A stretch of 49,870 nt of DNA. Source: Chloroflexota bacterium (GTDB lineage Bacteria > Chloroflexota > Dehalococcoidia > SZUA-161 > SpSt-899). Positions 23,977-40,646 of the stretch are shown here, one piece after another. A program made the position numbers and the translations under genes. Position 1 is the stretch's first letter. Every line of letters begins with the position of its first letter. Below the pieces are notes generated by a model that saw nothing but the letters and a program-made list of their open reading frames with translations, made no database searches and was not told where the DNA came from. The DNA is taken from contig JABMQN010000016.1 in NCBI GenBank assembly GCA_013203045.1, positions 1-49,870 of the forward strand. The letters run 5' to 3'.

Positions 23977-24915
23977 CTATAGATTCAGGAATCCAGCGGC
24001 ATAAAGTGTCTGGTTAAGTAGAATCTTGGCCGTCTTCATGACAGCGACCTGCTCCGGATCACTCTGATCAACGATGCTGAAATCGAATTCCTCAAGCATC
24101 ATGTTTTCAGCGGCATCATACAATGCAAGATAAAGTTTATTAAGTGGGGTGGAATCGTCCCGGGTGTTAACAACTTTAAGGGTTTTTTGAAGATCGGTAT
24201 CAAAAGCATCGGCGATGGGCCAGTCCATTCCTCCGCCGGCCAGCATAGCAGCATATACTCGATTCAAAATCGGGCGAACTTCTTCTGGGCATGCATTGGA
24301 AACGTTGGAAAGTCCGCAGGTGGTCAGGAACGGCGGATCGTTCAACTGTTTCATGACCTGACAGGCCTTTACTACTTCAGGAGCATGGGATTGCGTGCCA
24401 GCTACTGTCATGGCCAGCGGATCAAAGATGATGTTCTCCATTGGTAAACCGTATTCCATCGCTGCCATCATCAGATCCGTAGCTGCGATTTCAGCGCGTT
24501 CATCGGCGGTTGCAGGAAGACCAGTGGCGCGAAGTGTGAGGCAGATAAGATAAGCATCATGTTCTGCTGCCATAGGCATGAGAACCTTCATTCGCTCTGG
24601 ATTGGCATTAGTGGAATTGATGATAGGTTTCGGATCTTTCGGGAGCATCTTTAGGCCAGCCTCAATAGCTGCTGCATTGGTGGTGTCGAGACAAATACCT
24701 GTAGGCGCGCTAACAACTTCCATTACGGTCTCAACCATCCACTGCATTACCTCGACACCGTCCTTCTTCCGGGGCCCGATGTTCAGGTCTATGTACTTGG
24801 CTCCGCCAGCAACCTGTTTCTTCGCTAACTCCTGAATAAAAGTCTTATCGCGGTTTTCAACGGATTCCCTGATTTCTTTGGAGATAATATGAATACTTTC
24901 TCCGATGATTTCCAT
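23977..24915 (-). CDS. acsE: Methyltetrahydrofolate:corrinoid/iron-sulfur protein methyltransferase (AcsE-like)
   Basis: MEIIGESIHIISKEIRESVENRD...GAKYIDLNIGPRKKDGVEVMQWMVE...NSTNANPERM...DPLAMTVAGTQSHAPEVVKACQVMKQ...CGLSNVSNACPEE. Confidence 0.9.
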   Translation of the reverse strand: MEIIGESIHIISKEIRESVENRDKTFIQELAKKQVAGGAKYIDLNIGPRKKDGVEVMQWMVETVMEVVSAPTGICLDTTNAAAIEAGLKMLPKDPKPIINSTNANPERMKVLMPMAAEHDAYLICLTLRATGLPATADERAEIAATDLMMAAMEYGLPMENIIFDPLAMTVAGTQSHAPEVVKACQVMKQLNDPPFLTTCGLSNVSNACPEEVRPILNRVYAAMLAGGGMDWPIADAFDTDLQKTLKVVNTRDDSTPLNKLYLALYDAAENMMLEEFDFSIVDQSDPEQVAVMKTAKILLNQTLYAAGFLNL

Positions 24916-24925
24916 TTTTTCCTCC

Positions 24926-25684
24926 TTATTTAAGTCCCAATTTATTTATTATATCCTTGATACTCACCTGAAGCGGTGAGTCAGAAGGCAGAGTAATGGA
25001 GGGTTCTCCCTTAATCTCGATAGCAGCCAGGTTGGGATCTGCAGGAATGCTTACTAGCAAATCAAGATCGTTTTCTTTGACCGATGCTTCTATCTCCGCT
25101 GGAAGTTCATCAACTACCCGATTAACGATCAGCCAGATTTGGCTCACATGAGTTCTGATTTCCTTCATGAGCGGCTTCATTCTACCGGCGGCAATAACGC
25201 CTCGAATAGTTGGGTCAGTTACCACTAACAAGATGTCAATGTCTCTGGTTGTCTGGCGGCTGACGTGCTCCATTCCGGCTTCACAATCGATGACTACATA
25301 ATCGTAGTTCTTACCCAGTCTGTCGATGGAAGTGCGAAGCATACTGTTGGCTGCACAATAGCATCCTGGGCCCTCAGGTCTACCCATGGCGATAAGATCG
25401 ATCTTTTCCGATTCGACCAGCGATTCCATTATCTTCATCTCGATATAATCGGGCTTGGCAACACTATCATCGTAGGCGCCACTCTTCACGGCAATTGCCA
25501 TCTCTTCCCGTACTTGCCCGATTGTATCTTCCAAAGGCATTCCCAGCGCCAAGTTCAAATTGGTGCTGGGATCAGCATCGACAGCCAAAACGGTTCCCTT
25601 CTCAGATAATTGGTTTATGAGTAAAGCAGCTATAGTGGTCTTACCGGTGCCGCCCTTTCCTGCAGTTACAATTGTGGTTCCCAA
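24926..25684 (-). CDS. CooC/AcsF-like nickel-insertion (CODH maturation) ATPase
   Basis: TIVTAGKGGTGKTTIAALLINQLSEKGTVLAVDADPSTNLNLALGM; MGRPEGPGCYCAANSMLR; YVVIDCEAGMEHVSRQTTRDID. Confidence 0.9.
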   Translation of the reverse strand: MGTTIVTAGKGGTGKTTIAALLINQLSEKGTVLAVDADPSTNLNLALGMPLEDTIGQVREEMAIAVKSGAYDDSVAKPDYIEMKIMESLVESEKIDLIAMGRPEGPGCYCAANSMLRTSIDRLGKNYDYVVIDCEAGMEHVSRQTTRDIDILLVVTDPTIRGVIAAGRMKPLMKEIRTHVSQIWLIVNRVVDELPAEIEASVKENDLDLLVSIPADPNLAAIEIKGEPSITLPSDSPLQVSIKDIINKLGLK

Positions 25685-25708
25685 TTTGTTTGCCTTCCTT
25701 AACAGATT

Positions 25709-25776
25709 CGCTCTTCGACAAGCTCAGAGTGATCGGGGGAAAAGAATTCGTTTGTGCTGAGCCTGTCGAAGCACAA
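25709..25776. repeat. Intergenic palindrome related to 12034-12093 (CTTCGACAAGCTCAGAGTGATCGG...GTGCTGAGCCTGTCGAAG)
   Basis: CTTCGACAAGCTCAG / CTGAGCCTGTCGAAG complementary halves. Confidence 0.75.
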
Positions 25777-25779
25777 ATT

Positions 25780-26568
25780 CTATTTCCCTTTAAACTCAGG
25801 TTTCCGCTTTTCCAGAATTGCCTTTATACCTTCTTTGGCATCTTCGGTTGCCATACTGAGGCAAGTGGCTCTTACTTCGGCTTCCAACAGCGAGGCCATG
25901 TCCATAGTCATCCCCTGATATATAGTGGCCTTGGCCATGCCGATAGCCTTCGAAGGGCCTTTGGCCAGGCGAAGCGCCATTTGTTTTGCTGTGCTTTCGA
26001 GTTGATCTGCGGGTACCACTTGATTAATGAGCCCGATTCTCTCAGCCTCAGTGGCGTCAATCGTTTTACCAGTAAAGATCAACTCGCAGGCCCGGGCGGT
26101 GCCAACCAAACGTGTTAGCAGGTACACTCCGCCAGTATCCGGGTGCAACCCAAGACTCATGAAGGCCTGGCTAAAAGTGGCATTTTGGGCCGCAATTATA
26201 ATATCACAACCGAGGGCAAGATTACATCCGGCTCCGATTGCAGGCCCATTGACAGCGGCAATCCATGGTTTGGGCATGTTTCTCATCCCGGAAATGATTA
26301 TGGCGCCTTGCTTGCTGGTGGCCATCAATTCTACCGGGTTCTCCATCGATGAAGAAAGGAGATCACCTATGTCACCTCCGGCACAGAAAGCACGGCCGGC
26401 GCCGGTGAGTAATACTGAGCGAACTTCATCATCCTGCGCAACTTCATCGATCACGTTGATCAAATCAGTAACCAGTTCGGGGCAGATAGCATTGAGTTTA
26501 TCTGGGCGATTCAGCGTTATTGTGGCCACCCCGTTTTCTTTTTCCGGGGTGAGGGTCGTGTAGCTCAT
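25780..26568 (-). CDS. Enoyl-CoA hydratase/isomerase family (crotonase)
   Basis: MSYTTLTPEKENGVATITLNRPDKLNAICPELV; LLTGAGRAFCAGGDIG; KPWIAAVNGPAIGAGCNLALGCD; ATG at 26568 preferred over the 26625 ORF start. Confidence 0.93.
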   Translation of the reverse strand: MSYTTLTPEKENGVATITLNRPDKLNAICPELVTDLINVIDEVAQDDEVRSVLLTGAGRAFCAGGDIGDLLSSSMENPVELMATSKQGAIIISGMRNMPKPWIAAVNGPAIGAGCNLALGCDIIIAAQNATFSQAFMSLGLHPDTGGVYLLTRLVGTARACELIFTGKTIDATEAERIGLINQVVPADQLESTAKQMALRLAKGPSKAIGMAKATIYQGMTMDMASLLEAEVRATCLSMATEDAKEGIKAILEKRKPEFKGK

Positions 26569-27230
26569 GTGTTTTCCTTTGCCACCAATGCTCCCACCGG
26601 GCAAATGGAAACACACTCCATGCACTGATTGCAGTTGGACTGACCAATGGGCTGGCCGGCAAATGAGGTTACCATTCGATCGAATCCGCGATATGCGAAT
26701 CCAATAGCTCCTATTCCAAGTTCATGACATTTCCAGACGCACTTTCCGCAAAGCACACACTTGTTCGGGTCGTAAATGAAGATAGGACTACTATCGTCAA
26801 TTGGGAGTTCTTTGAGGAGTTTTCGATATCGTTTAGTGTTAAGCTTAACTCCCAGATGCTTTGCTGCTTTTTGAAGTTCGCAGGAATTGTTGGCAGCACA
26901 GTGACCGCAATCTACAGGATGACTGGCCAGAAGCAGCTCCAGGGCGGTTCGAGCCAATGATTGCGATTCGGTTCCCTTAGTATTCACCACCATCCCCTCT
27001 GTGATCGGTTCCGTACAGGCAGTGACTGGCATTGGCTTGCCTTCAACTTCGACGAAACAAAGTCGGCATGATGCAGCGGGATCGGTCCTTTCACGGATCG
27101 CACAAAGATTTGGTATGTAAATATCATTATCCAAAGCTGCCCAGAGTATACTCTGGCCCTCCGGAGCGGTAACCTTTTTGTTATCGATTGTCAGAGTTAT
27201 ACTACTCATGGTCATTTCCACAGCTTGCAA
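26565..27230 (-). CDS. NuoG/HydA N-terminal-like iron-sulfur protein (2Fe-2S, HC3 4Fe-4S, 2x4Fe-4S), no catalytic domain
   Basis: CAIRERTDPAASCRLCFVEVEG, SHPVDCGHCAANNSCELQ, CVLCGKCVWKC, CNQCMECVSICPVGAL then stop. Confidence 0.88.
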   Translation of the reverse strand: MQAVEMTMSSITLTIDNKKVTAPEGQSILWAALDNDIYIPNLCAIRERTDPAASCRLCFVEVEGKPMPVTACTEPITEGMVVNTKGTESQSLARTALELLLASHPVDCGHCAANNSCELQKAAKHLGVKLNTKRYRKLLKELPIDDSSPIFIYDPNKCVLCGKCVWKCHELGIGAIGFAYRGFDRMVTSFAGQPIGQSNCNQCMECVSICPVGALVAKENT

Positions 27231-27509
27231 TCAACCGGGAAATTGCATCCGACTGCGGCGGAGTCTTTCCACCTCCGCTGTATTTGTTTTAATCACCATG
27301 CCCTCAGCAACAGGTTCAGCACAGGCATTTGCTATGTTCCCATTAAGTTCAATATAACAAAGCTTGCAGCCTTTAACGGGAGGGTCAGCCCCAGCTTCAA
27401 AGCAGGCATAAGGGATGTGAATCCCGGCATTTAGCGCCGCTTCCAGTATTTTCACGCCGAGGTGAGCTTGCATTCGAGTGTCATTGATAGTGATAGAAAC
27501 AGTGCTCAT
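27231..27509 (-). CDS. Short 2Fe-2S ferredoxin domain protein
   Basis: VSITINDTRMQAHLGVKILEAALNAGIHIPYACFEAGADPPVKGCKLCYIELNGNIANACAEPV; N-terminus like the 27230 and 32473 proteins. Confidence 0.8.
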   Translation of the reverse strand: MSTVSITINDTRMQAHLGVKILEAALNAGIHIPYACFEAGADPPVKGCKLCYIELNGNIANACAEPVAEGMVIKTNTAEVERLRRSRMQFPG

Positions 27510-29431
27510 TTCTTCTCCATTGGCGGCATAGCTTCCGGAAGTTCACTCAAAGGCGAAATCCTGGTTATGGCGTTGTATTGTGGAGGGCAGGCCTCTACAC
27601 AGGTATTGCACTTAACGCACTTATCCTGATCAATGACTTTTATTCCTGTTTTCCCCTGATAAATGGCTTCAACCGTGCAAGTACCAACACAAGCATCACA
27701 AGATCGCTGGCATTTCTCAGGGAGAATATAGTACGCCATCAGGTTGTAACACCTGCGGGCCGGACAGTGCTTGTCATGAATATGTGCTTCGTATTCATCA
27801 CGGAAGTACCGAAGGGTTGTCAGTACGGGATTGGGCGCTGTTTTTCCCAGATTGCAGAGTGACCCTGCCTTGATATCATGTGCTAGCTGTTCAAGTGTAA
27901 CGAGGTCTTCGAGTTTGGCCTCACCTTTGGTAATATCGTCGAGCATGTTAAGCATCTGCTTCGTTCCGAGTCTGCACACAGTGCACTTTCCACAGGACTC
28001 ATTCTGGGTAAATTCAAGGAAGTACCGGGCTACATCGACCATGCAATCATCTTCATTCAGGATAACCATGCCACCTGAACCCATCATGGCCCCAGCATCT
28101 CTAAGAGAGTCGAAATCGATAGGAAGATCGAGAGCTGATTCCGGAAGGCATCCTCCGGAAGGTCCACCGATCTGTACAGCTTTGAACTGTCTGCCTTCAG
28201 GAATACCGCCACCGATCTCGAAGATGACATCACGCAATGTTGTACCCATTGGAACTTCCGTCAAACCAGTGTTTGTTATCTTGCCGGCAAGGGCGAATAC
28301 GGTGGTGCCTTTTGTCGCATTAAGCCCAATTCCCGAAAACCAGTCTGCCCCACGATCAATTATACGAGGTACTGAAGCCAGAGTCTTTACATTGTTGATG
28401 ATGGTTGGTTTGCCGTGCAGCCCGTTGACTGCCGGAAACGGAGGGCGATGATGAGGCATGCCCGCCCTGCCTTCAATTGAAGCGATGAGTGCGGTCTCTT
28501 CGCCGCAAACAAATGCCCCTGAACCTTGAAAAACAGAGATGTCAAAGCTGAAATTGCTACCCACAATATTATCGCCAAGCAGGTTTGACTGCCGGGCTTG
28601 TTCAATTGCTTTGGTTACGCGTTGCACCGCCAGAGGATACTCGGCTCGAATGTAGACATATCCTTCTTGGGTACCTGCGGCATATGCAGCGATGACGATT
28701 CCTTCGATGAGCGAATGCGGATCGCTTTCAAGTATGGCTCGATCCATGAAGGCCCCGGGATCCCCCTCATCGGCATTACATATTATATATTTGTAATCGC
28801 TTTCTGAATCACGGCATATTTGCCATTTTGCCCCAGTCGAAAAACCTGCCCCACCCCTTCCCCGGAGGCCGGATTTCTTGATTTCTTCAACAACGTTCTC
28901 AGGTTGCATCTGCAATGATTTGGCCAGAGCCCCGTATCCGCCTGTTGCAATGTAATGATCAATATTATCGGGATCGATCCGACCGCAGTTCTCCAAAATA
29001 ATGTAGTGTTCATATGTAGAACGAGGAAGGTCATTCATCGAAGGGAGAAGTTCATTGGTTTCCATGGCTCCGAGTAGGAATTCAAGAGAAGGATCTTCCC
29101 CGAAGACATAGTCACGTACCAATAATTGAGCGATTTCCGGAGTTACGTAGCCATATAAGAGAGGCGGATATTCCCCGCCGGGTTTGGCGATTATAACCAG
29201 AGGTTCTGCATAGCAATGTCCTATGCAACCAACCTCCAACACGGGAATATCCTGATGATCATCTCCCAGAGTTTTCCGAATAGATTCCAATACATCAAGG
29301 GCACCGGCGGCCCTGCCGCAAGTTGCAGTTCCTACCATAATGACTGGTTTATCTCCCTGTATCAGATCAGTCCAACGAGACTGGGAGGTCTCTTTGAGTT
29401 GCTGATATGCAGAAGCTATTTCGGAACTCAC
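27506..29431 (-). CDS. NuoF/HydB-like NADH-binding flavoprotein with N-terminal thioredoxin-like 2Fe-2S domain and C-terminal 2x4Fe-4S
   Basis: SGLRGRGGAGFSTGAKWQ; CNADEGDPGAFMDRAILE; GAFVCGEETALIASIEG; ESCGKCTVCRLGTKQML; C-terminal CQRSCDACVGTC / CVKCNTCVEACPP. Confidence 0.93.
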   Translation of the reverse strand: MSSEIASAYQQLKETSQSRWTDLIQGDKPVIMVGTATCGRAAGALDVLESIRKTLGDDHQDIPVLEVGCIGHCYAEPLVIIAKPGGEYPPLLYGYVTPEIAQLLVRDYVFGEDPSLEFLLGAMETNELLPSMNDLPRSTYEHYIILENCGRIDPDNIDHYIATGGYGALAKSLQMQPENVVEEIKKSGLRGRGGAGFSTGAKWQICRDSESDYKYIICNADEGDPGAFMDRAILESDPHSLIEGIVIAAYAAGTQEGYVYIRAEYPLAVQRVTKAIEQARQSNLLGDNIVGSNFSFDISVFQGSGAFVCGEETALIASIEGRAGMPHHRPPFPAVNGLHGKPTIINNVKTLASVPRIIDRGADWFSGIGLNATKGTTVFALAGKITNTGLTEVPMGTTLRDVIFEIGGGIPEGRQFKAVQIGGPSGGCLPESALDLPIDFDSLRDAGAMMGSGGMVILNEDDCMVDVARYFLEFTQNESCGKCTVCRLGTKQMLNMLDDITKGEAKLEDLVTLEQLAHDIKAGSLCNLGKTAPNPVLTTLRYFRDEYEAHIHDKHCPARRCYNLMAYYILPEKCQRSCDACVGTCTVEAIYQGKTGIKVIDQDKCVKCNTCVEACPPQYNAITRISPLSELPEAMPPMEKK

Positions 29432-29952
29432 GAACTCTGAGACTCCTTTTTTCGTTCAATCTGGTACCCAAGAAGAATACCATCTACTCTGGTGGGACTT
29501 ATCTTGCCCTGAACTTCCTCATCGATCACTGTCACCGGGGCCATAGCGCAGCATCCAACACAGGCAACGGTATCAAGATCGAATTCGCGGTCAGGTGTTG
29601 TTTGCCGTTTATCGATACCCAAACGACGTTTCCATGCATCCATGATGACGGTACCACCACCGACATGACAGGCAGTACCCATGCATACTCGAATCGAGTG
29701 TTTGCCCGGTGGATTCAGTCGAAATTGATTGTAGAACGTTACAACGCTGTAGACGTCAATATCTGGTATATCCAAGAATTCAGCTATTCCCAGCATGGCT
29801 TCGTGAGGGAGATATCCAATCCTGTTCTGGGCTTCTTGTAGAATGGGGATGAGATTAGACCTTTCTTTGGAGAATGTGGAGTTGATATTGCTAAGGAATA
29901 GGGACACTTTCCCCATTTCCTCTTTGGTGATTTCCGGTGGGAAGTCAGTCAA
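29428..29952 (-). CDS. NuoE/HydC-like 2Fe-2S subunit
   Basis: LIPILQEAQNRIGYLPHEAMLGIAEFLDIP..VYSVVTFYNQFRLNPPGKHSIRVCMGTACHVGGG...CVGCCAMAPVTVI. Confidence 0.92.
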   Translation of the reverse strand: MTDFPPEITKEEMGKVSLFLSNINSTFSKERSNLIPILQEAQNRIGYLPHEAMLGIAEFLDIPDIDVYSVVTFYNQFRLNPPGKHSIRVCMGTACHVGGGTVIMDAWKRRLGIDKRQTTPDREFDLDTVACVGCCAMAPVTVIDEEVQGKISPTRVDGILLGYQIERKKESQSS

Positions 29953-30977: not shown

Positions 30978-32258
30978 TTATTGGGTTTCAGCGGGTAATG
31001 AAAATGTGAATTTGCATCCGCAGAGTGTTTCGGGGCAAGGGCTTTTCGCTTCTATTTGGCCTCCGTGGGCTTCAATGATTCTCTTAACAATCGGCAAGCC
31101 CAATCCTGATCCGGGAGCTTCTACATTCGTAGCGCGATAGAAGTCCTCAAAAATGTGAGGAAGATCTTCTGCTGGAATACCAATCCCATCATCTTGCACT
31201 TCACCGATGATTTCGCCATTCTTTGATAGTAGTTGCAGATTCACAGTTCCACCCTCGGCAGTAAACTTTATAGCATTACTTAGCAGGTTAGTTAGTGCCT
31301 GCTGCAATCGAAGAGAGGAACCATGAATAGGAGGAAGATCAGGTGGAATATCAACTATAAGTTGTATCTCTTTTTGTTCTGCCAGACGATCTATGTCTTC
31401 CAGCAACTCATCGGTGATCTCATTCAGCGATACTTGCTCCATTTCGTTGACAATTTGCCCGGTTTCAATACGTGAGATATCCAAGAGGTCACTGATGAAT
31501 TCCAGTAGCCCATCTAACCTGGCACTGCTTTTTTCGATCATTGACTGGTGTTTTTCGTTGAGTTCGCCAGTATATCCCCCCAGCATCACACCGAAATAAG
31601 TTTGTATGGCAGCAATGGGAGCTTTCAGATCATGGGCTACCATGGAGATAAAAGCGAGAAGTTTATCTTTTGCCTCTTCTACCTTTGCCAGGTCCTCCTG
31701 GCTTTGTTCAAGTTGTGCCATTTTCTCCTGCAGGCGCTTCTCGTAGTATTGTTCTTGTGACTCGTATTCGCGTGCCTTTCTTAGGGAAATTGCTCCCAAG
31801 GCGGCAACGAGGTTCAAGAATTCAATATCGTCGGTAGTAAAATCACGCGGTTCGCTGGTATATACTCGTAAAATACCAATGACTTCTTCGCGGAGGACCA
31901 TGGGCATCGAGAGGATTGAAGCTATTCCTTCTTCTTTTGCCTGGGCTTTGTACTGAATTCGAGGATCTGTGGTTGCGTCGAAGACGATTATCGGATTGCC
32001 CTTAAGCGCCTCATCGGTTATGGGGTCGATCGTTACCGAACCTTTTCGGATATATGAATTGCTTAGTCCGTATGCTACGGTGTGTACTAGCCGTTTGCGA
32101 TCTTGTGAAAGCAACATCAGGGAGCAACCTTTTATACCAATTACTTTAGCTGTACTTCGTACAATTCCATTGAGCACATCTTTGGTTGATGTGCTGGAGT
32201 CCACTTCCGTGGCAATCTGATACAGCGCTTTGTAGTAATCTAGAGGTTTGCTTCTCAT
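30978..32258 (-). CDS. Cytoplasmic GAF-domain sensor histidine kinase
   Basis: GAF region; HisKA MVAHDLKAPIAAIQTY; N-box LLSNAIKFTAEGG; G-box DDGIGIPAEDLPHIFEDFYRA, GSGLGLPIVKRIIEAHGG; no obvious TM segments. Confidence 0.92.
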   Translation of the reverse strand: MRSKPLDYYKALYQIATEVDSSTSTKDVLNGIVRSTAKVIGIKGCSLMLLSQDRKRLVHTVAYGLSNSYIRKGSVTIDPITDEALKGNPIIVFDATTDPRIQYKAQAKEEGIASILSMPMVLREEVIGILRVYTSEPRDFTTDDIEFLNLVAALGAISLRKAREYESQEQYYEKRLQEKMAQLEQSQEDLAKVEEAKDKLLAFISMVAHDLKAPIAAIQTYFGVMLGGYTGELNEKHQSMIEKSSARLDGLLEFISDLLDISRIETGQIVNEMEQVSLNEITDELLEDIDRLAEQKEIQLIVDIPPDLPPIHGSSLRLQQALTNLLSNAIKFTAEGGTVNLQLLSKNGEIIGEVQDDGIGIPAEDLPHIFEDFYRATNVEAPGSGLGLPIVKRIIEAHGGQIEAKSPCPETLCGCKFTFSLPAETQ

Positions 32259-32472
32259 TGATACTACCCTGATATTGGCACAATTATGACAATCCATCTT
32301 TTGGAAGTCAAGTATTGTGAGATTTATCTACAAACGAATACCTATTGGTTTGTGGATTTTATAATGTTGACAAGTCCTGTGGTTTGGTGTAACCTAGTCA
32401 CTAATTACTCAGGGCGATGCAAGAATAAGAATCCGTTTTGTCCACATAATCCTCGGCAAAGGAGATTCACAG

Positions 32473-34872
32473 TTGCAGGCTGTCACTATTACTCTAAATG
32501 GGGTTGAAGTAAGCGGCCATCCTGGAATGACCATCCTTGACCTGGCCCGTGAATCAGGCACTCACATTCCAACTCTATGCCATGATCCTCATCTTAAACC
32601 ATACGGTGCTTGCCGTATATGCATCGTAGAGGACGAACGTAACGGTGCTCTTTTAGCATCCTGTGTTGCTCCTATAGCACCGGGGATGGTGATTAATACC
32701 AAATCAGAAAAGGTTCTGGAGAGCCGTAAAACAATTGTTAAACTAATGCTCGCCAGTCATCCTGATACGTGCATGGTATGCGATAAAGGCAACCGTTGCC
32801 AGTTGCGTCAAATAGCTACTGATCTTGGGATTGGACTAATTGACTTGCAGAGAATTCCACACCCTGCAGTGATTCAGGAATTGAACCCGTTTATAGAGCG
32901 TGACCTCAGTAAATGTATCATGTGTGCCAAGTGTATCCGGGCGGATCAGGAATTAGTGGTTCAAGGTGCTATCGATTTCATAGATCGAGGCTTTGCCTCT
33001 CATCCGGCGACATTGGGAGATTTGCCACTTGAAAAATCTGTTTGTATGTTCTGCGGTACGTGTGTTTCCATTTGCCCCACTGGTGCCCTTTCTGAAACGA
33101 AAAGGGTTTTGAGCGGAACTGCGACAAAGGTAGTATCCACGGTTTGCTCTTTCTGTGGATGCGGGTGCAATATTAATCTTGAGGTTAGTGGCGATCGCAT
33201 AGTAAGAGCGCGACCGAAGGAAGAAAACTCACCTAATGGTATTACACTTTGTGCCAGAGGTACCTTTGGGTTTGATTATGTGCATAGTTCAGAAAGACTT
33301 ACTCAGCCTCTGATAAAGGTAGATGGTGAGTTTCAACCAGTTTCCTGGGAAGAGGCAATCAGCGCAGTTGCTCAGGGGTTTGACCAGACAAAAGGTGCCA
33401 ATGGAGCGGATAGTCTAGCGGTTTACGGATCATCGAAGTGTACGAATGAAGAAAACTATGTTTTGCAGAAGTTTGCTCGTGGTGTATTGGGCACGAATAA
33501 CATAGACAACGGTGGCAGCCTTTATGATTTTGCAACAAGAACGGGACTCGAGGGGTGTTTGCGTTTTCCGACCAGTACCAATCCGATTGACGATATTGAA
33601 CAATCGCAAGTAATCATGCTCATCGGGGCTGATCCTGTGATATCGAACCCGATTGTTGGGTACGCTATTAAACGGGCTGCAAAATACAACAACACAAAAC
33701 TGATCCTTATCAATCCCGCAGAAACCGATCTTGGTCTGTTTACGAACTTATGGTTACGTCCAGGCATAGACACTGACGATGTTCTAATCAACGGAATAAT
33801 AAAGGCAGTTTTTGATCAGGACCTGACCAACAAGGAATTTGCTACTGAGAAAACAGAGAACTTCGATACCATTTCGAAATCAATAGAGAAATATACACCG
33901 GAGCATGTTCGGGAAATTACCGATATCCCTGCCGAGGAAACTCTAAACGCGGCTCGGCTTTTCGCCGAAGCAAATAGTGCTACGATCATCGTTGGAACGG
34001 GAATAACACAAAGTCCTGTCGGCTCCAGAAGCATTCGTGCTCTGGCTAATCTGAGTTTGGTAACCGGAAACATTGGGAAGGGTGGCGGAGGGCTTTTATT
34101 GTTGCGAAGAGAAAACAATGCCCAGGGCGCAACTGATATGGGGTGTGTTCCCGATTTGTTGCCCGGTTACCAGAAAGTTCAAGGGAATTCCGGATTATCA
34201 GTCATTGAAATGATCGAGCAGGCGAAGTCGGGAAAAATTAAGGCAATGTACATTGTAGGGGAGAACCCCGTTGCGAATTTCCCAGATGAATCGAAGATAA
34301 CAGAAGCTCTTTCGTCCTTGGATTTTCTGGTTGTACAAGACCTATTCTTTACAGAGACGGCAAAACTGGCAAACATTGTTTTACCAGCAGCAAGTTTTGC
34401 AGAGAAGGATGGTACTTTCACCAATTTCGAACGCAGAGTTCAGCGCGTCAGGCAAGCTGTTGATCCGATAGGAGGTAGCTTACCGGATTGGCAGATTATA
34501 CAGAAAATAGCAGATGAGATGGGATCTGATATGAAATACGCCTCAGCAGAAGAGATCATGGCAGAGATAGGTGAAACGGTTCACATATATCGTGGAATTA
34601 ATTATGAAGAAATTGAATCCGGGGGAGTGTATTGGCCCAAGTCGGAAACTGATAGAGCCGGTACCAGACGCTTTTATGAAGATAGATTTCCTCGCGGGTA
34701 CGGAAGGCTTTCGGCAGAGGAATCTCAAATTTCAGCAGAAAGGGCTGAGAGTCAACTAACGATAAAACATCCATCAGGCAAAACACTCTATAGGTTCGGG
34801 AATGGAACTCGGAGTTCAAAATCGGCAAGGCTGGGTGCTATGACTCCGGAGACCTCTGAGGTTACAACTTAA
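32473..34872 (+). CDS. FdhA/NuoG-like molybdopterin oxidoreductase-family protein with N-terminal Fe-S domains; no Sec/Cys at the expected Mo-ligand position
   Basis: 2Fe-2S CHDPHLKPYGACRICIVE; SHPDTCMVCDKGNRCQLR; CIMCAKCIRAD; CMFCGTCVSICPTGAL; CSFCGCGCN; ENNAQGATDMGCVPDLLPGYQ; TTG start. Confidence 0.9.
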   Translation: MQAVTITLNGVEVSGHPGMTILDLARESGTHIPTLCHDPHLKPYGACRICIVEDERNGALLASCVAPIAPGMVINTKSEKVLESRKTIVKLMLASHPDTCMVCDKGNRCQLRQIATDLGIGLIDLQRIPHPAVIQELNPFIERDLSKCIMCAKCIRADQELVVQGAIDFIDRGFASHPATLGDLPLEKSVCMFCGTCVSICPTGALSETKRVLSGTATKVVSTVCSFCGCGCNINLEVSGDRIVRARPKEENSPNGITLCARGTFGFDYVHSSERLTQPLIKVDGEFQPVSWEEAISAVAQGFDQTKGANGADSLAVYGSSKCTNEENYVLQKFARGVLGTNNIDNGGSLYDFATRTGLEGCLRFPTSTNPIDDIEQSQVIMLIGADPVISNPIVGYAIKRAAKYNNTKLILINPAETDLGLFTNLWLRPGIDTDDVLINGIIKAVFDQDLTNKEFATEKTENFDTISKSIEKYTPEHVREITDIPAEETLNAARLFAEANSATIIVGTGITQSPVGSRSIRALANLSLVTGNIGKGGGGLLLLRRENNAQGATDMGCVPDLLPGYQKVQGNSGLSVIEMIEQAKSGKIKAMYIVGENPVANFPDESKITEALSSLDFLVVQDLFFTETAKLANIVLPAASFAEKDGTFTNFERRVQRVRQAVDPIGGSLPDWQIIQKIADEMGSDMKYASAEEIMAEIGETVHIYRGINYEEIESGGVYWPKSETDRAGTRRFYEDRFPRGYGRLSAEESQISAERAESQLTIKHPSGKTLYRFGNGTRSSKSARLGAMTPETSEVTT

Positions 34873-34924
34873 CAAAATATTGCGAGAGAAACGGTAGTTG
34901 AACACTGAAGACGGGGTTTCGATT

Positions 34925-35410
34925 ATGAGCAATAACATAAATCCACCAGAAGTTGATCTGACTGTACTTGATGAGATAATTGAAAAATATAAAGGACAGC
35001 GTTGGTCACTTATCCCATTGTTGCAAGAAGTCCAGGAGAAGTTAGGATATATTCCACCTGAGGCGATTAAACAGATAGCAGATGGATTGGATATCTTTCC
35101 CAGCCAGGTTCAGGGCGTGATCAGCTTCTATACCGGTCTCTATACAACTCCACGAGGGAAAAATATAGTCAAAGTATGCAGAGGTACAGCCTGTCATGTG
35201 CGTGGCGGGAAAACGATATTGAAACTGGTTAAGCAGAACCTTGACCTTGAAGAAGGCGAAACATCACCGGATTTCGAATACACATTGGAAACTGTCGCCT
35301 GTATTGGTGTTTGTGCAATTGCACCCAATATGGTGATTAACAATGATAACTACGGTCAACTGAATCCAAAGAAAGTGACGCAGATATTTAGCTCTAGAGA
35401 TCAGAAATAG
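34925..35410 (+). CDS. NuoE-like 2Fe-2S subunit (second copy)
   Basis: LIPLLQEVQEKLGYIPPEAIKQIADGLDIFPSQVQGVISFYTGLYTTPRGKNIVKVCRGTACHVRGG...CIGVCAIAPNMVI; ATG 34925 preferred over 34898. Confidence 0.92.
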   Translation: MSNNINPPEVDLTVLDEIIEKYKGQRWSLIPLLQEVQEKLGYIPPEAIKQIADGLDIFPSQVQGVISFYTGLYTTPRGKNIVKVCRGTACHVRGGKTILKLVKQNLDLEEGETSPDFEYTLETVACIGVCAIAPNMVINNDNYGQLNPKKVTQIFSSRDQK

Positions 35411-35420
35411 AGGTTAATTT

Positions 35421-38400
35421 ATGAGCAAACCTCAATATACCGTTCTCGTTTGTAGAGGCACCGGGTGCGTTTCCGGAGGCGGAGATGCAGCTTACGAAGC
35501 TCTGAAAGCTGAAGTTGAGCGGCAGGGCGTTAAAAATGCCGTTATTGATTTTACCGGTTGTCATGGCTTCTGCCAGCAGGGTCCCAATGTAGTTATTGAG
35601 CCGGATGGCATTTTCTATACCATGGTTCAGCCAGAAGATGCCGAAGAAATCGTTGCTTCGCATTTCAAGGAAGGTAAGCCGGTCGAAAGGCTCTTCTACA
35701 TTGATCCGGTAAGTGGTAAGCCTGTTCCCCTTTACTCCCAAATCAATTTCTATGCCAAGCAGCAGCGGGTGGTTCTACGCAATTGCGGACGTATAAATCC
35801 GGAAAAAATCGAAGATTATGTGGAATGTGGTGGCTATCGGGCACTCAGAAAAGTACTGGCAACGATGACCCCGGAAGATGTGATCGCCGAGATAAAGACA
35901 TCTGGTTTGAGAGGACGTGGTGGTGCCGGGGCACCCACGGCTATGAAATGGCAGTTTTGTCACGATGCGCCGGGACCCACGAAATATGTTATCTGCAACG
36001 CTGATGAAGGCGATCCGGGTGCGTTTATGGATAGGTCCATTTTGGAGGCCGATCCCCACGCGATGCTGGAGGGGCTAACAATCTGTGGTTTTGCCACAGG
36101 AGCTAGTACTGGATATGTCTACGTTCGAGAAGAATATCCACTGGCAGTGAGCCGGGTGAAAATCGCACTGGACCAAAGCAGAAATAAGGGATTCTTGGGG
36201 AAAGATATCCTGGGCTCAGGATTTGATTTCGATATCATTATTATGGAAGGTGCAGGGGCCTTCGTATGTGGTGAGGAAACGGCATTAATGGCATCAATCG
36301 AGGGCAGGCGCGGCATGCCTCGACCGCGGCCTCCTTTCCCGGCCACTTCCGGTCTGGATGGAAAACCTTCCAATATCAACAATGTTAAGACTCTATGCGC
36401 TATCGCGGCGATTATTGATAATGGAGCGGAGTGGTTTGCAGGTATTGGCACCGAAAAAAGCACCGGTACGGCTGTCTTTGCTATAACCGGTAAAATAGCA
36501 AATAGTGGGCTTGTTGAGGTCCCGATGGGCACTCCGCTGAGGGATATCATTTTCGATATAGGGGGTGGTATTCCCCGCGAAAAGGAGTTCAAAGCCGTTC
36601 AAACGGGTGGGCCTTCCGGAGGTTGCATCCCGGCCCGTTTTCTGGATAGACCGGTGGACTATGATTCCCTGGCACAATTGGGTTCGATTATGGGTTCTGG
36701 CGGAATGGTGGTTCTCGACGAGAACACTTGCATGGTCGAAATCGCGCGCTATTTCCTGAGTTTCACTCAAGATGAGTCGTGTGGCAAATGTACGCCCTGC
36801 AGGCTGGGCACCCGTCAGATGCTGGAAATCCTCACCCGAATAACTCAGGGCAAAGGAGAAGAAGCTGATCTTGATAAACTACTCGACATTGCAAAAGTAG
36901 TGAAAACCTGTTCTTTATGTGGACTGGGGCAGACGTGTCCCAATCCTATTTTAACTACCATAAATTACTTCAAAGATGAATATGAGGCTCACATAAAGGA
37001 GCACAAGTGTCCGGCTGCTGTCTGTGATGCCCTGATGATCTCACCATGTCAGCATACTTGTCCGGTGGGAATCAATATTCCCAAGTATGTTGCAGCTATC
37101 GCTGAAGGGGATTATCAAAAATCAATTGATGTGATTCGTGAGAGGAATCCCTTCCCCTCAATTTGCGGTCGTATCTGCCATCATCCGTGTGAAGTCCGGT
37201 GCCGTCGTGGTGAATTGGATGAGTCGGTTGCTATTCGTTCATTAAAACGTTTTGCTGCTGATTGGTATTTTAAAAATGCTACTACAGATCCGGAACCGTT
37301 TCCTCGAACTCAGAAGGAAAAAGTGGCCATCGTTGGTGGCGGTCCTACCGGTCTTGCTTGCAGTTATTTCTTGGCCTCGATGGGATACGAGGCAACTGTT
37401 TTTGAAGCGCTTCCGCTCGGTGGTGGAATGCTTTCCGTTGCTATCCCGGCTTTTCGTCTTCCTGCAGAGGTTATACAGAAGGACATTGATTATATCGCTA
37501 AGAAAGGCGTAGAAATAAGGTACAATACACCGATAAATACAAATTACACTATTGATCATCTCAAAAACGAAGGATATAATGCTGTGTTCATTGCAGCCGG
37601 CGCTCAAAGGAGCCAGCGCGTAGGTATCCCCGGTGAAGTTGAAGGGATTGAAGGACTCTATTATGGGCTTCAGTTTTTAAGGGATGCCAAGATTGGTCGA
37701 CCTATAAAGGTCGGGAAGAAGGTCGCAGTTATAGGAGGCGGGAATGTAGCTCTGGATACTGCCCGAAGCGCGCTTCGTATGGGTGCCGAAGATGTAAATC
37801 TCTACTATCGCCGATCACGAAATGAGATGCCGGTGACCGAGGTGGAATACGACGAGGCCATAGCTGAGGGAATCAAGATGCATTTTCTGACCAGTCCAAC
37901 CCGCATCGTTAACGAGGGATGGCAGGTGTCTGGGTTGCAGTGTATTAAAATGGAACTTGGCGAACCGGATGACAGTGGTCGGCGGCGTCCAGTACCGATT
38001 GAAGGTTCAGATTCATTCATCGAAGCGGATACAGTGGTTGCCGCCGTTGGCCAGGCAGCTGACATGTCCTTCCTTCCGGCTGATAGTGCATTGGAGCGTA
38101 CTCGGTGGGAAACGTTGAGTGTTGATAGTAATACCCTGGCGACCAATATCCCCGGAGTCTTTGGCGGTGGCGATTTCGTAACAGGTCCGGGTATGGTTAT
38201 CGAAGCTATCGCTGCCGGACGCAGGGGAGCGATGGCAATTGAAAAATATTTCACAAAAGATGATACTCCGGTACGAATGTATGATCTAAGGAGTGAGATT
38301 TTCCGTGAAGCAGTGCCGGAAGAAGAAGCGGTAGAGGAGTGGAAGGCAGAGCCTCGAAGTGAAATGCCGATCCTTTCGCCGGAAGAACGAAGGACAAGTT

Positions 38401-38483
38401 TCAACGAAATAGAGCTTGGCTTTTCAGAAGAGAGAGCGCAGTTTGAAGCGAAACGGTGCCTGCGGTGTGACCTGGAAACGTAA
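35421..38483 (+). CDS. NuoF-GltD fusion: NADH-binding flavoprotein fused to a glutamate synthase small-chain/NfnB-like FAD-NAD(P) domain
   Basis: N-terminal thioredoxin-like 2Fe-2S, SGLRGRGGAGAPTAMKWQ, GAFVCGEETALMASIEG, ESCGKCTPCRLGTRQM; then CGRICHHPCEVRCRRG, VAIVGGGPTGLACSYFLASMGY, VAVIGGGNVALDTARSALRMGA in one 1020-aa ORF. Confidence 0.93.
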   Translation: MSKPQYTVLVCRGTGCVSGGGDAAYEALKAEVERQGVKNAVIDFTGCHGFCQQGPNVVIEPDGIFYTMVQPEDAEEIVASHFKEGKPVERLFYIDPVSGKPVPLYSQINFYAKQQRVVLRNCGRINPEKIEDYVECGGYRALRKVLATMTPEDVIAEIKTSGLRGRGGAGAPTAMKWQFCHDAPGPTKYVICNADEGDPGAFMDRSILEADPHAMLEGLTICGFATGASTGYVYVREEYPLAVSRVKIALDQSRNKGFLGKDILGSGFDFDIIIMEGAGAFVCGEETALMASIEGRRGMPRPRPPFPATSGLDGKPSNINNVKTLCAIAAIIDNGAEWFAGIGTEKSTGTAVFAITGKIANSGLVEVPMGTPLRDIIFDIGGGIPREKEFKAVQTGGPSGGCIPARFLDRPVDYDSLAQLGSIMGSGGMVVLDENTCMVEIARYFLSFTQDESCGKCTPCRLGTRQMLEILTRITQGKGEEADLDKLLDIAKVVKTCSLCGLGQTCPNPILTTINYFKDEYEAHIKEHKCPAAVCDALMISPCQHTCPVGINIPKYVAAIAEGDYQKSIDVIRERNPFPSICGRICHHPCEVRCRRGELDESVAIRSLKRFAADWYFKNATTDPEPFPRTQKEKVAIVGGGPTGLACSYFLASMGYEATVFEALPLGGGMLSVAIPAFRLPAEVIQKDIDYIAKKGVEIRYNTPINTNYTIDHLKNEGYNAVFIAAGAQRSQRVGIPGEVEGIEGLYYGLQFLRDAKIGRPIKVGKKVAVIGGGNVALDTARSALRMGAEDVNLYYRRSRNEMPVTEVEYDEAIAEGIKMHFLTSPTRIVNEGWQVSGLQCIKMELGEPDDSGRRRPVPIEGSDSFIEADTVVAAVGQAADMSFLPADSALERTRWETLSVDSNTLATNIPGVFGGGDFVTGPGMVIEAIAAGRRGAMAIEKYFTKDDTPVRMYDLRSEIFREAVPEEEAVEEWKAEPRSEMPILSPEERRTSFNEIELGFSEERAQFEAKRCLRCDLET

Positions 38484-38488
38484 AAGTA

Positions 38489-38508
38489 GCCACAGAGGCA
38501 CCGAGAAA
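38489..38508. repeat. Left inverted repeat bracketing the GxxExxY gene
   Basis: GCCACAGAGGCACCGAGAAA; 17/20 identical to the reverse complement of 38903-38922. Confidence 0.75.
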
Positions 38509-38515
38509 AATAGTT

Positions 38516-38902
38516 GTGAATCGAACCGATTCAGGTTTATTGGGCCAAGTTACTGAAAGTATCATTGGATGTGCCATTGAAGTACATCGAAACTTGGGGC
38601 CGGGACTATTGGGATCGATTTATGAAAGTGCACTGTGTTATGAATTAAATGCGAATAACATACCTTTTGAGAGACAAGTTCAAGTACCTGTGATTTATAA
38701 AGGACAAAAACTGGGAGAGCATAGGCATGATATACTGGTCGAAAACCAGGTTATAGTGGAGTTGAAAGCGGTAGACAGAATGGATCCGATATTTGAAGCT
38801 CAACTCCTTTCATATTCGAGAGTAACAGGTAAAAAAGTGGGACTATTGATCAATTTCAATGTACCGGTATTGAAGAGGGGAATAAAAAGAATGATTCTCT
38901 AA
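38516..38902 (+). CDS. GxxExxY protein (PD-(D/E)XK nuclease-like family)
   Basis: GPGLLGSIYESALCYEL (GxxExxY core), HDILVENQVIVELKA (D..ExK-like); GTG start. Confidence 0.92.
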   Translation: MNRTDSGLLGQVTESIIGCAIEVHRNLGPGLLGSIYESALCYELNANNIPFERQVQVPVIYKGQKLGEHRHDILVENQVIVELKAVDRMDPIFEAQLLSYSRVTGKKVGLLINFNVPVLKRGIKRMIL

Positions 38903-38922
38903 TTTCTCTGTGTCTCAGTGGC
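38903..38922. repeat. Right inverted repeat bracketing the GxxExxY gene
   Basis: TTTCTCTGTGTCTCAGTGGC, pairs with 38489-38508. Confidence 0.75.
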
Positions 38923-38945
38923 AATGTATCGCACGGGAGGAGAGG

Positions 38946-39590
38946 ATGAAATCGATTACCAAGCAGAAGGACTTTGAAGCTGTTAAGGAAATTTTAGAGC
39001 CGTTTGACCGGATTTTCATATTTGGATGCGGAACATGCACTACCATGACCCACACCGGTGGTGTCGAAGAAGTTGCCGAAATGTGTGGGAAACTTCAGGA
39101 ATTAGGAAAGCTGGTCACTGGTTCAACCGTTGTCCCCACAGCTTGCGATGAAGTTACAGAGGAAATCATGAAGCAGCATGGCCAGGCTATTGAGAACGCT
39201 ACGGCCATCCTGGTGATGTCATGTGCTCTGGGTGTGCAGAAAATAGCATCATATATTGAAAAACCCGTTATTCCTGCAGTGGATACCCTATTCATCGGAG
39301 TGGAAGATACCCCCGGCACTTTCAAGGAAGCATGCGATCAGTGTGGACAATGCATTATTGGCGAAACTGCTGGTATTTGTCCCATTACAGCTTGTCATAA
39401 AGGGCTGGTGAATGGCCCGTGTGGTGGAACAAGCAATGGGAAGTGTGAAGTCGATAAAGAGCGGGACTGTGCTTTTACCCTGATATATAATCGGCTGAAA
39501 ATTCAGGGCAGACTGGACCTGATGAAGAAATATCACGAACCCAAGAATTACCACGTGGAACCGCGACCGAAAGTGATCAAAGTCTCGTGA
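38946..39590 (+). CDS. metV: Methylenetetrahydrofolate reductase C-terminal/zinc-binding accessory protein MetV
   Basis: MKSITKQKDFEAVKEILEPFDRIFIFGCGTCTTMTHTGGVEEVAEM...CDQCGQCIIGETAGICPITACHKGLVNGPCGGTSNGKCEVDKERDCAF. Confidence 0.92.
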   Translation: MKSITKQKDFEAVKEILEPFDRIFIFGCGTCTTMTHTGGVEEVAEMCGKLQELGKLVTGSTVVPTACDEVTEEIMKQHGQAIENATAILVMSCALGVQKIASYIEKPVIPAVDTLFIGVEDTPGTFKEACDQCGQCIIGETAGICPITACHKGLVNGPCGGTSNGKCEVDKERDCAFTLIYNRLKIQGRLDLMKKYHEPKNYHVEPRPKVIKVS

Positions 39591-39698
39591 TGCAGGGGCA
39601 CATTTCAATGCGCCCTCATGGACATGCTGGAATTGGCGTATTAAGTTGACAATTCCAGCGTGCATGTAGAATCTTGCAAAGGCAAGAGGAGAGAAACT

Positions 39699-40592
39699 AT
39701 GGCAAAAAGCTCTTTCAAAGAAGCGCTAGAGTCCGGCAAATTCGTAATCACCAGTGAGATTGGCCCTCCCAAGGGAACCAACATAGAGCCGATGTTGCAT
39801 CATATTGATCTCCTGAAGGATATCGTTGATGGCATAAATGTCACTGATCACCAGAGCTCAGTGATGCGTTTTCCGTCGATCGGCGGTTGCCTGGCTATTA
39901 AAGAGCGCGGTGGGGAACCAATTCTACAGATGACTTGCCGTGACAGAAACCGCATGGCGCTTCAGGCCGATCTTCTTTATGCCTACACAAGAGGGATTCG
40001 AAACGTTTTATGTCTCACTGGCGATGCTGTGCCAGTTGGGGATCATCCAACAGCCAAAGGTGTTTTTGATCTCGATTCTTCCCAGCTTTTACAGACAATC
40101 AGATTGCTGGAGTCAGGAAAAGACATGGGAGGGAATGATCTGAATGGGTCACCGGAGTTCTGCGCTGGGGCCATTGTTACACCGGAAGCAAATCCCATCG
40201 AACCGCAGTTAGCTAAATTTGAAAAGAAGATTGAAGCAGGTGCTGAGTTTATTCAGACCCAGGCGATTTACGATCTGGAAAATTTCGCCAAGTTCATGGA
40301 GTATGCTCGGCAGTTCAATGTCAAGATCATGGCCGGGATAGTTTTGCTGGTTTCAGCTAGGATGGCTAAATTCATGAATAACAATGTGCCAGGTATTTTC
40401 GTTCCCGACCATCTGATCGATGAACTAGCTGCCGCTCCCAAAGGAGAGGCCCTTAACACAGGTATTCGGATCGCCGGCAGGATGGTAAAGCAGCTTAAAG
40501 AACAAAACCTATGCGACGGTGTACACATTATGGCAATTGGAAAAGAAGAGGTTGTGCCGGATATTTTAGCGGCAGCCGGTATTCAAAAATAG
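39699..40592 (+). CDS. metF: Methylenetetrahydrofolate reductase
   Basis: KFVITSEIGPPKGTNIEPMLHHIDLLKDIVDGINVTDHQSSVMRFPSI; GIRNVLCLTGDAVPVGDHP; AEFIQTQAIYDLENFAKFM. Confidence 0.93.
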   Translation: MAKSSFKEALESGKFVITSEIGPPKGTNIEPMLHHIDLLKDIVDGINVTDHQSSVMRFPSIGGCLAIKERGGEPILQMTCRDRNRMALQADLLYAYTRGIRNVLCLTGDAVPVGDHPTAKGVFDLDSSQLLQTIRLLESGKDMGGNDLNGSPEFCAGAIVTPEANPIEPQLAKFEKKIEAGAEFIQTQAIYDLENFAKFMEYARQFNVKIMAGIVLLVSARMAKFMNNNVPGIFVPDHLIDELAAAPKGEALNTGIRIAGRMVKQLKEQNLCDGVHIMAIGKEEVVPDILAAAGIQK

Positions 40593-40618
40593 CAAATAGA
40601 TTTACATAAAATCCGTAG

Positions 40619-40646
40619 AGGGCGCGATTTATCGCGCCCTTTTTTA
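40619..40646 (+). terminator. Rho-independent terminator after metF
   Basis: AGGGCGCGA TTTA TCGCGCCCT followed by TTTTTAT. Confidence 0.85.

What the first reader, a model, noticed from the sequence alone, without database searches (positions are those of the whole stretch)
32473..40592. FdhA-like/NuoE/NuoF-GltD genes directly upstream of metV-metF: candidate multisubunit, possibly bifurcating methylene-THF reductase
Seen in sequence: one plus-strand run encodes an FdhA/NuoG-like Fe-S protein, a NuoE, a NuoF-GltD fusion, then MetV and MetF, ending at a clear terminator (40619-40646). Established: MetF usually works with partners in acetogens (MetV with Hdr/Mvh or RnfC-like proteins), and NuoEF-type flavoproteins are the core of HydABC/Bfu-type electron-bifurcating enzymes. 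Inference: the set could form a NAD(P)H/ferredoxin-coupled MTHFR complex, or a formate/CO2-linked complex co-regulated with the methyl branch. This partner combination is not one I recognise as characterised.
Basis: partly seen in the sequence, partly recalled or inferred. Interest (0 to 1): 0.8.

Follow-up and report, generated by a model that had tools for sequence, protein, structure and literature searches.

The report
NuoEF-linked (X-type) methylene-THF reductase cluster
[quoted passage not shown] the gene arrangement was briefly noted in print in 2021 but has never been tested, and its parts give clues to how it works.

Summary
The run is real: FdhA-like, NuoE, NuoF-GltD, metV and metF on the plus strand, closed by a terminator.

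Synteny is strong. All five genes recur in order in 15 further Dehalococcoidia genomes and 3 deltaproteobacterial MAGs. The metV-linked NuoF-GltD proteins form one clade beside formate-dehydrogenase-linked ones. All 26 FdhA-like proteins of that clade lack the Sec/Cys-His catalytic pair; formate-dehydrogenase clusters keep it. NuoF-GltD cores elsewhere pair with hydrogenases. Simpler HoxU-NuoE-NuoF sets without GltD also precede metVF.

Best reading: a multisubunit methylene-THF reductase in which the dead FdhA is only an electron conduit. NuoF keeps the ligands of the Bfu bifurcation site, but GltD replaces the ferredoxin domain, so NADP(H) rather than ferredoxin is the likelier third carrier (inferred).

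Prior art: Yi et al. 2021 (PMC8515935) named this arrangement 'X type' MTHFR, widespread in Desulfobacterales and Chloroflexi, possibly bifurcating, unstudied. The window is therefore a new member of a described, untested kind. Physical association and bifurcation remain unproven.

The parts
32473..34872 (+). FdhA/NuoG-like Fe-S subunit (799 aa): Fer2, His-Cys3, Fer4 pair, N7-type Fe4S4 and a degenerate molybdopterin domain; Sec/Cys-His pair replaced by Tyr351-Asp352; C-terminal ~85 aa missing relative to homologues
   Evidence: Pfam; active-site comparison; alignment A3
34898..35410 (+). NuoE / BfuC-like [2Fe-2S] thioredoxin-fold subunit with CRGTAC...CIGVC ligand motif
   Evidence: Pfam PF01257 3.8e-48; sequence
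35421..38483 (+). NuoF-GltD fusion: residues 1-539 BfuB/HydB-like (FMN, B1, B2, B5 ligands), residues ~543-1018 StnC/NfnL-type GltD with two [4Fe-4S], FAD and NADPH-type RR motif; no ferredoxin domain
   Evidence: model and fold search
38490..38921 (.). probable inserted cassette: imperfect inverted repeats 38490-38508 / 38903-38921 (16 of 19 matching) around the GxxExxY gene
   Evidence: match count and background 0 of 7053 positions at the same spacing
38516..38902 (+). GxxExxY / PD-(D/E)XK_3 gene, single copy in this genome, absent from all related clusters examined; not thought to be part of the enzyme
   Evidence: PF13366 1.3e-41, TIGR04256
38946..39590 (+). MetV (longest ORF from 38910; ATG at 38946 matches the homologues' start)
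   Evidence: PF12225 2.5e-35
39699..40592 (+). MetF, methylene-THF reductase catalytic subunit (longest ORF from 39660)
   Evidence: PF02219 2e-43
40617..40642 (+). intrinsic terminator closing the run
30978..32297 (-). divergent GAF-HisKA-HATPase sensor kinase; related kinases lie next to several related clusters (possible regulator)

Best explanation
The five genes (not the GxxExxY insert) encode a multisubunit methylene-THF reductase of the kind called 'X type'. MetF reduces methylene-THF; MetV hands it electrons. NuoE and the NuoF half of NuoF-GltD oxidise or reduce NAD(H) at an FMN. The FdhA-like protein is a former formate dehydrogenase/NuoG subunit that has lost catalysis and now serves as a wire of Fe-S clusters from NuoEF to MetV. 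GltD, a second pyridine-nucleotide site (probably NADPH, FAD and two [4Fe-4S]), occupies the place of the ferredoxin-docking domain of Bfu enzymes. Because the ligands of the proposed bifurcation cluster B2 are intact, the most likely chemistry is reversible, near-equilibrium coupling: 2 NADH + methylene-THF + NADP+ = 2 NAD+ + methyl-THF + NADPH. Shown: gene content, conserved order, loss of the formate dehydrogenase site, cluster ligands, domain replacement. Inferred: one physical complex (about 0.7), bifurcation or confurcation (about 0.45), NADP(H) as third carrier (about 0.35).
For: Order FdhA-NuoE-NuoF-GltD-MetV-MetF complete in 15 further Dehalococcoidia genomes and in L074, L075, L085; every metV of this subfamily with upstream sequence follows GltD, with overlapping or near-abutting genes in several deltaproteobacterial loci. 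metV-linked NuoF-GltD form one clade (33 rows, SH-aLRT 100), sister to formate-dehydrogenase-linked ones. Catalytic pair absent in 26 of 26 FdhA-like proteins of that clade, present in at least one copy of all 12 formate-dehydrogenase-linked NuoF-GltD clusters read. The same core pairs with [FeFe] or [NiFe] hydrogenase elsewhere, so the neighbouring catalytic gene defines the partner. Twelve metVF sets have only HoxU-like, NuoE (where found) and a short NuoF, with no GltD, no Mo domain and no B2 ligands: the diaphorase has nothing but MetVF to feed. Diaphorase-linked MetV split from FlpD-linked MetV at support 100. B1, B2 (C437, T475, H524, C530, C535) and B5 ligands conserved. MetVF of C. ljungdahlii alone does not use NAD(P)H (PMC8760232). 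Genome has ACS (CdhC) and FTHFS matches. With E' from PMC9304861 and -200 mV for methylene-THF (PMC8515935), coupling with NADP+ is +3.9 kJ/mol and with ferredoxin +27 kJ/mol.
Against: Gene order is not proof of a complex. Loss of the formate dehydrogenase site is one event in one clade, so its association with metVF is not many independent tests. StnC also carries an inactive FdhF domain without MetVF, so the dead FdhA fits a separate transhydrogenase too. In S. ovata stnABC lies just downstream of metVF yet was purified as a three-subunit complex (PMC7483475). One locus (L178) has a live formate dehydrogenase, a NuoF without GltD and metV together. Residues near the GltD nucleotide site vary (RR to LE) in some relatives. 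The NuoF-GltD model (pTM 0.51) does not fix the geometry between B2 and the GltD clusters.
Confidence: 0.6

Rival explanations
1. The first three genes encode a stand-alone, domain-shuffled Stn-like electron-bifurcating transhydrogenase, merely co-transcribed with metVF because both serve the methyl branch.
For: GltD is closest among solved structures to the GltD part of StnC/Nfn-ABC, with the RCLxC segment moved to the C-terminus; StnC also holds an inactive FdhF-like domain (PMC10482914); in S. ovata stnABC lies immediately downstream of metVF (PMC7483475).
Against: No ferredoxin domain (B3/B4), which Bfu-type enzymes use for ferredoxin; the same NuoF-GltD core sits with formate dehydrogenases and hydrogenases, where GltD cannot be the only extra substrate site; metVF-linked sets without GltD exist; no metV-unlinked member of the clade was found apart from a contig end and a split gene.
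Confidence: 0.22
2. A plain, non-bifurcating NAD(P)H:methylene-THF reductase complex: the B2 ligands are an inherited relic and GltD is an alternative NADPH entry. (This shares the physical complex with the best explanation and differs only in the chemistry.)
For: Short HoxU-NuoE-NuoF-MetV-MetF sets in the same class lack B2 and B5 ligands, so a simple NADH-driven version apparently suffices.
Against: B1 and B2 ligands and all eight GltD cluster cysteines are conserved across nearly the whole metVF-linked clade, which a relic would not predict.
Confidence: 0.25
3. A formate- or CO2-linked complex (formate dehydrogenase) co-regulated with metVF.
For: FdhA-like protein matches TIGR01591 with 552.8 bits (below its 666 cut-off) and known formate dehydrogenases; L178 shows a live formate dehydrogenase beside metV.
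Against: Sec/Cys and His replaced in all 26 copies of the clade; the window copy also lacks the C-terminal domain; a separate selenocysteine formate dehydrogenase is encoded elsewhere in this genome (L066).
Confidence: 0.03

Closest known systems
X-type MetFV methylene-THF reductase (Yi et al. 2021, PMC8515935)
   Same: NuoEFG homologues directly upstream of metFV; Desulfobacterales and Chloroflexi; bifurcation proposed; unstudied
   Different: That text does not mention the NuoF-GltD fusion, loss of the ferredoxin domain, the dead formate dehydrogenase site or the short HoxU/NuoE/NuoF form
Stn / Nfn-ABC transhydrogenase (8OH5, 9BOV, 9N5U; PMC10482914, PMC7483475)
   Same: NuoE, BfuB-type NuoF, GltD with permuted RCLxC, inactive FdhF-like domain; adjacent to metVF in S. 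ovata
   Different: Stn keeps GltD within the NuoG-like subunit and has extra C-terminal [4Fe-4S] sites on its NuoF; here GltD is fused to NuoF in place of those sites and NuoG/FdhA is separate
Bfu family (HydABC-like bifurcating enzymes, PMC9304861)
   Same: FMN domain, B1, B2 (with diagnostic His) and B5 ligands in NuoF; BfuC-like NuoE; BfuA-like FdhA
   Different: B3/B4 ferredoxin domain (IPR017896), part of the BfuB definition, absent
HdrABC-MvhD-MetVF of Moorella and RnfC2-MetVF of Acetobacterium
   Same: MetVF with an extra NADH-oxidising module
   Different: Module is NuoEF/GltD/FdhA, not Hdr/MvhD or RnfC; MetV belongs to a separate lineage from FlpD-linked MetV

Membership tests
X-type MetFV MTHFR | NuoE, NuoF and NuoG homologues directly upstream of metV and metF | tested here: met
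   conserved in relatives, (in the window itself the GxxExxY insert intervenes)
X-type MetFV MTHFR | MetFV in the phylogenetic group of Dethiosulfatarculus sandiegensis (group III) | not tested
   reference sequence not fetched; window MetV groups with diaphorase-linked MetV including deltaproteobacterial ones and apart from FlpD-linked MetV
X-type MetFV MTHFR | one purified complex with methylene-THF reductase activity | not testable with these tools
   not shown for any member in the papers read
Bfu electron-bifurcating family | BfuB B1, B2 (Cys, Cys/Thr, His, Cys, Cys) and B5 ligands | tested here: met
   C454/457/460/500; C437, T475, H524, C530, C535; C11/16/47/51
Bfu electron-bifurcating family | C-terminal ferredoxin domain with B3/B4 (IPR017896) in BfuB | tested here: not met
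   no Fer4 match in the NuoF half; GltD begins at 543
Bfu electron-bifurcating family | BfuA homologue carrying A1/A2 clusters | tested here: met
   FdhA-like N-terminal cysteines conserved; one position (158) is Asp in the window and in the deltaproteobacterial copies
Stn transhydrogenase | GltD fused into the NuoG-like subunit (StnC) | tested here: not met
   GltD is fused to NuoF
NAD-dependent formate dehydrogenase | Sec/Cys followed by His at the molybdenum site | tested here: not met
   Tyr351-Asp352 in the window; absent in all 26 copies of the clade
Electron-bifurcating enzyme (function) | obligate coupling of two acceptors or donors | not testable with these tools
   needs enzymology

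The most novel reading that the evidence does not exclude
A bifurcating methylene-THF reductase whose ferredoxin outlet has been swapped for an NADP(H) site by gene fusion, so that NADH drives methylene-THF and NADP+ reduction together (or NADPH plus methyl-THF confurcate onto NAD+ in reverse); it arose when a NuoF-GltD formate dehydrogenase lost its own catalysis and took MetVF as a replaceable catalytic head, as other NuoF-GltD cores took hydrogenases.
Probability: 0.3. Interest if true: 0.8.

Novelty: new member of a known kind. Interest (0 to 1): 0.55.

Why it matters
The electron donor of methylene-THF reductase decides whether the Wood-Ljungdahl pathway pays in many anaerobes, and the second acceptor in the Moorella-type enzyme is still unknown. 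This widespread but untested form offers, within one class, a version with bifurcation-site ligands and a plain version without them, plus a ready hypothesis for the third carrier (NADP). It also extends the Bfu logic (one redox core, exchangeable catalytic partners) to a core without a ferredoxin domain.

Tried and rejected
Formate dehydrogenase function: rejected on the active site. Classical Bfu with ferredoxin domain: defining domain absent. GxxExxY as a subunit: present only in the window. The FdhA-like structure model was too poor to use (pLDDT 60.2). The NuoF-GltD model gave folds of both halves (BfuB and NfnL/StnC) but no usable inter-domain geometry. Fused genes joining MetV to a redox subunit were looked for; none was found that could not be read as separate genes. 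Sigma-70-like promoter matches equalled shuffled expectation and are not used.
Full report
What is there. The window (49.9 kb, on contig C209 of a 3.97 Mb, 277-contig assembly) holds a plus-strand run: FdhA/NuoG-like 32473-34872, NuoE 34898-35410, NuoF-GltD 35421-38483, GxxExxY 38516-38902, MetV (ATG 38946) to 39590, MetF (ATG 39699) to 40592, then a strong terminator at 40617-40642. It is a single-copy, probably inserted cassette with imperfect inverted repeats (16 of 19 bases; no position sampled in the window reached 15 at the same spacing) and is absent from all related clusters examined. The closest named matches in the genome collection are Dehalococcoidia MAGs (75-79% identity over the NuoF part), so I place the source in class Dehalococcoidia (Chloroflexota). 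ACS (CdhC) and FTHFS matches lie elsewhere in the genome, consistent with a Wood-Ljungdahl methyl branch.

Conservation. Of 60 relatives, 23 have a NuoF-GltD match at E <= 1e-250. In the ones resembling the window, the order FdhA-NuoE-NuoF-GltD-MetV-MetF is kept. A class-wide search with MetV (85 of 245 genomes positive) and retrieval of neighbourhoods showed that every metV of the window's subfamily with sequence upstream follows GltD; the only others are contigs that end there. All five genes are seen complete in 15 further Dehalococcoidia genomes and in three deltaproteobacterial/Desulfobacterales MAGs (L074, L075, L085). In several of the deltaproteobacterial loci the NuoF-GltD and metV frames overlap or nearly abut.

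What the redox subunits are. NuoF residues 7-539 align end to end with BfuB/HydB subunits (748 bits to the NiFe-HydB 7T2R). The B1 ligands (C454, C457, C460, C500), the B2 ligands (C437, T475, H524, C530, C535) and the B5 ligands (C11, C16, C47, C51) are present; B1 and B2 in nearly all fusions read, B5 in most. The B2 histidine is reported to be conserved in virtually all Bfu enzymes and missing in homologues that do not bifurcate (PMC9304861). The alignment to solved BfuB chains stops near residue 540-570, where their ferredoxin domain with clusters B3 and B4 would begin; here a GltD domain follows. That GltD is closest among solved structures to the GltD part of Nfn-ABC/StnC, and shares the segment RCLxC moved to the C-terminus. 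An AlphaFold model matches BfuB with one half and NfnL/StnC-GltD with the other.

The FdhA-like subunit keeps every N-terminal Fe-S ligand except one Cys-to-Asp change at 158, shared with the deltaproteobacterial copies aligned. Its molybdopterin domain has lost the catalytic pair: D-N-G-G-S-L-Y-D where formate dehydrogenases have D-H-C-A-R-L-U/C-H. All 26 copies in the metVF-linked group lack it (four of these sit on contigs that end before metV and are placed by gene order and similarity). The 12 formate-dehydrogenase-linked NuoF-GltD clusters each keep at least one copy with it. The window copy also lacks the C-terminal ~85 residues.

Evolution. In a tree of 94 NuoF-GltD proteins the metV-linked ones form one clade of 33 rows (support 100), of which one row is a contig end and one a split gene; its sister group is formate-dehydrogenase-linked. 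Other NuoF-GltD clades sit with [FeFe] hydrogenase (Fe_hyd_lg_C confirmed for L086) or [NiFe] hydrogenase (NiFeSe_Hases confirmed for L059). In the NiFe sets of this class the Mo domain likewise lacks the catalytic pair. So the core is a reusable module, and when a separate catalytic head is adjacent the FdhA/NuoG domain is inactive. L079 is a second, separate link between NuoF-GltD and metV, with a 225-residue HoxU-like protein in place of FdhA. Twelve loci have a still simpler set, HoxU-like plus a short NuoF (NuoE found in most) plus metV and in most cases metF, without GltD and without B2 ligands. The MetV tree separates diaphorase-linked from FlpD/Hdr-linked MetV with support 100, and this genome has further metV loci of the FlpD kind.

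How it probably works. MetVF by itself does not accept NAD(P)H in C. ljungdahlii (PMC8760232). The conserved diaphorase is the natural donor, with the dead FdhA as wire. The existence of GltD-free metVF sets argues that the diaphorase-MetVF link, not transhydrogenation, is the common core. The intact B2 site argues for bifurcation in the window's version; the swap of the ferredoxin domain for GltD argues for NADP(H) as the third carrier. With physiological potentials from PMC9304861 and -200 mV for methylene-THF (PMC8515935), 2 NADH to methylene-THF plus NADP+ is near equilibrium (+3.9 kJ/mol), whereas with ferredoxin it is +27 kJ/mol. These are inferences; complex formation, cofactor content and coupling have not been measured.

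Known or new. Yi et al. 2021 (PMC8515935) reported NuoEFG homologues upstream of metFV in Dethiosulfatarculus sandiegensis, existing 'widely in Desulfobacterales and Chloroflexi', called it X type and speculated on bifurcation. Kremp et al. 2020 (PMC7483475) had stnABC directly downstream of metVF in S. ovata. The window is thus a new member of a described but untested kind. The fusion with loss of the ferredoxin domain, the clade-wide loss of the formate dehydrogenase site, the exchangeable partners and the short non-B2 form were not found in the papers read; the library holds open-licence papers only, so this is not proof of priority.

Noticed in passing
window 23977-29952, minus strand: A second Bfu-type module: NuoE, NuoF with its C-terminal Fer4 domain intact and a 221-aa BfuA-like protein, followed by an enoyl-CoA hydratase-family gene, a CooC/ParA-like ATPase and a pterin-binding methyltransferase; its third substrate is unclear.
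   Followed up: partly
window 38490-38921: GxxExxY gene framed by imperfect inverted repeats (CCACAGAGGCACCGAGAAA / TTTCTCTGTGTCTCAGTGG), looking like a mobile cassette inserted inside the operon.
   Followed up: partly
L176, L177, L179-L182, L184-L188, L078: Short HoxU-NuoE-NuoF-MetV-MetF sets lacking GltD and B2 ligands: a candidate plain NADH-dependent methylene-THF reductase complex.
   Followed up: partly
L056, L059, L060, L062, L086-L130 (several): NuoF-GltD fusions paired with [NiFe] Hox-type or [FeFe] hydrogenases in many phyla, possibly related to the poorly understood 'glutamate synthase-linked' hydrogenases of HydDB.
   Followed up: partly
L071 (G000:C105), L073 (G000:C133), L066 (G000:C86): Three more metV loci in the same genome; two carry metF with a GltD-Fer4-FlpD fusion protein, the third has an FlpD-like match upstream of metV.
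   Followed up: partly
window FdhA-like residue 158: Asp replaces one Cys ligand of an N-terminal [4Fe-4S] cluster here and in deltaproteobacterial copies, Cys in the other Dehalococcoidia copies aligned.
   Followed up: no
L074, L076, L080 (residues matching window 797-798 of NuoF-GltD): The RR pair expected to contact NADPH varies (LE in some relatives), hinting at a change of nucleotide preference.
   Followed up: no
L074 5887-6762 and equivalents in L075, L077, L085: An extra divergent MetF-family gene (about 31% identity) lies directly upstream of the FdhA-like gene in the deltaproteobacterial clusters.
   Followed up: no
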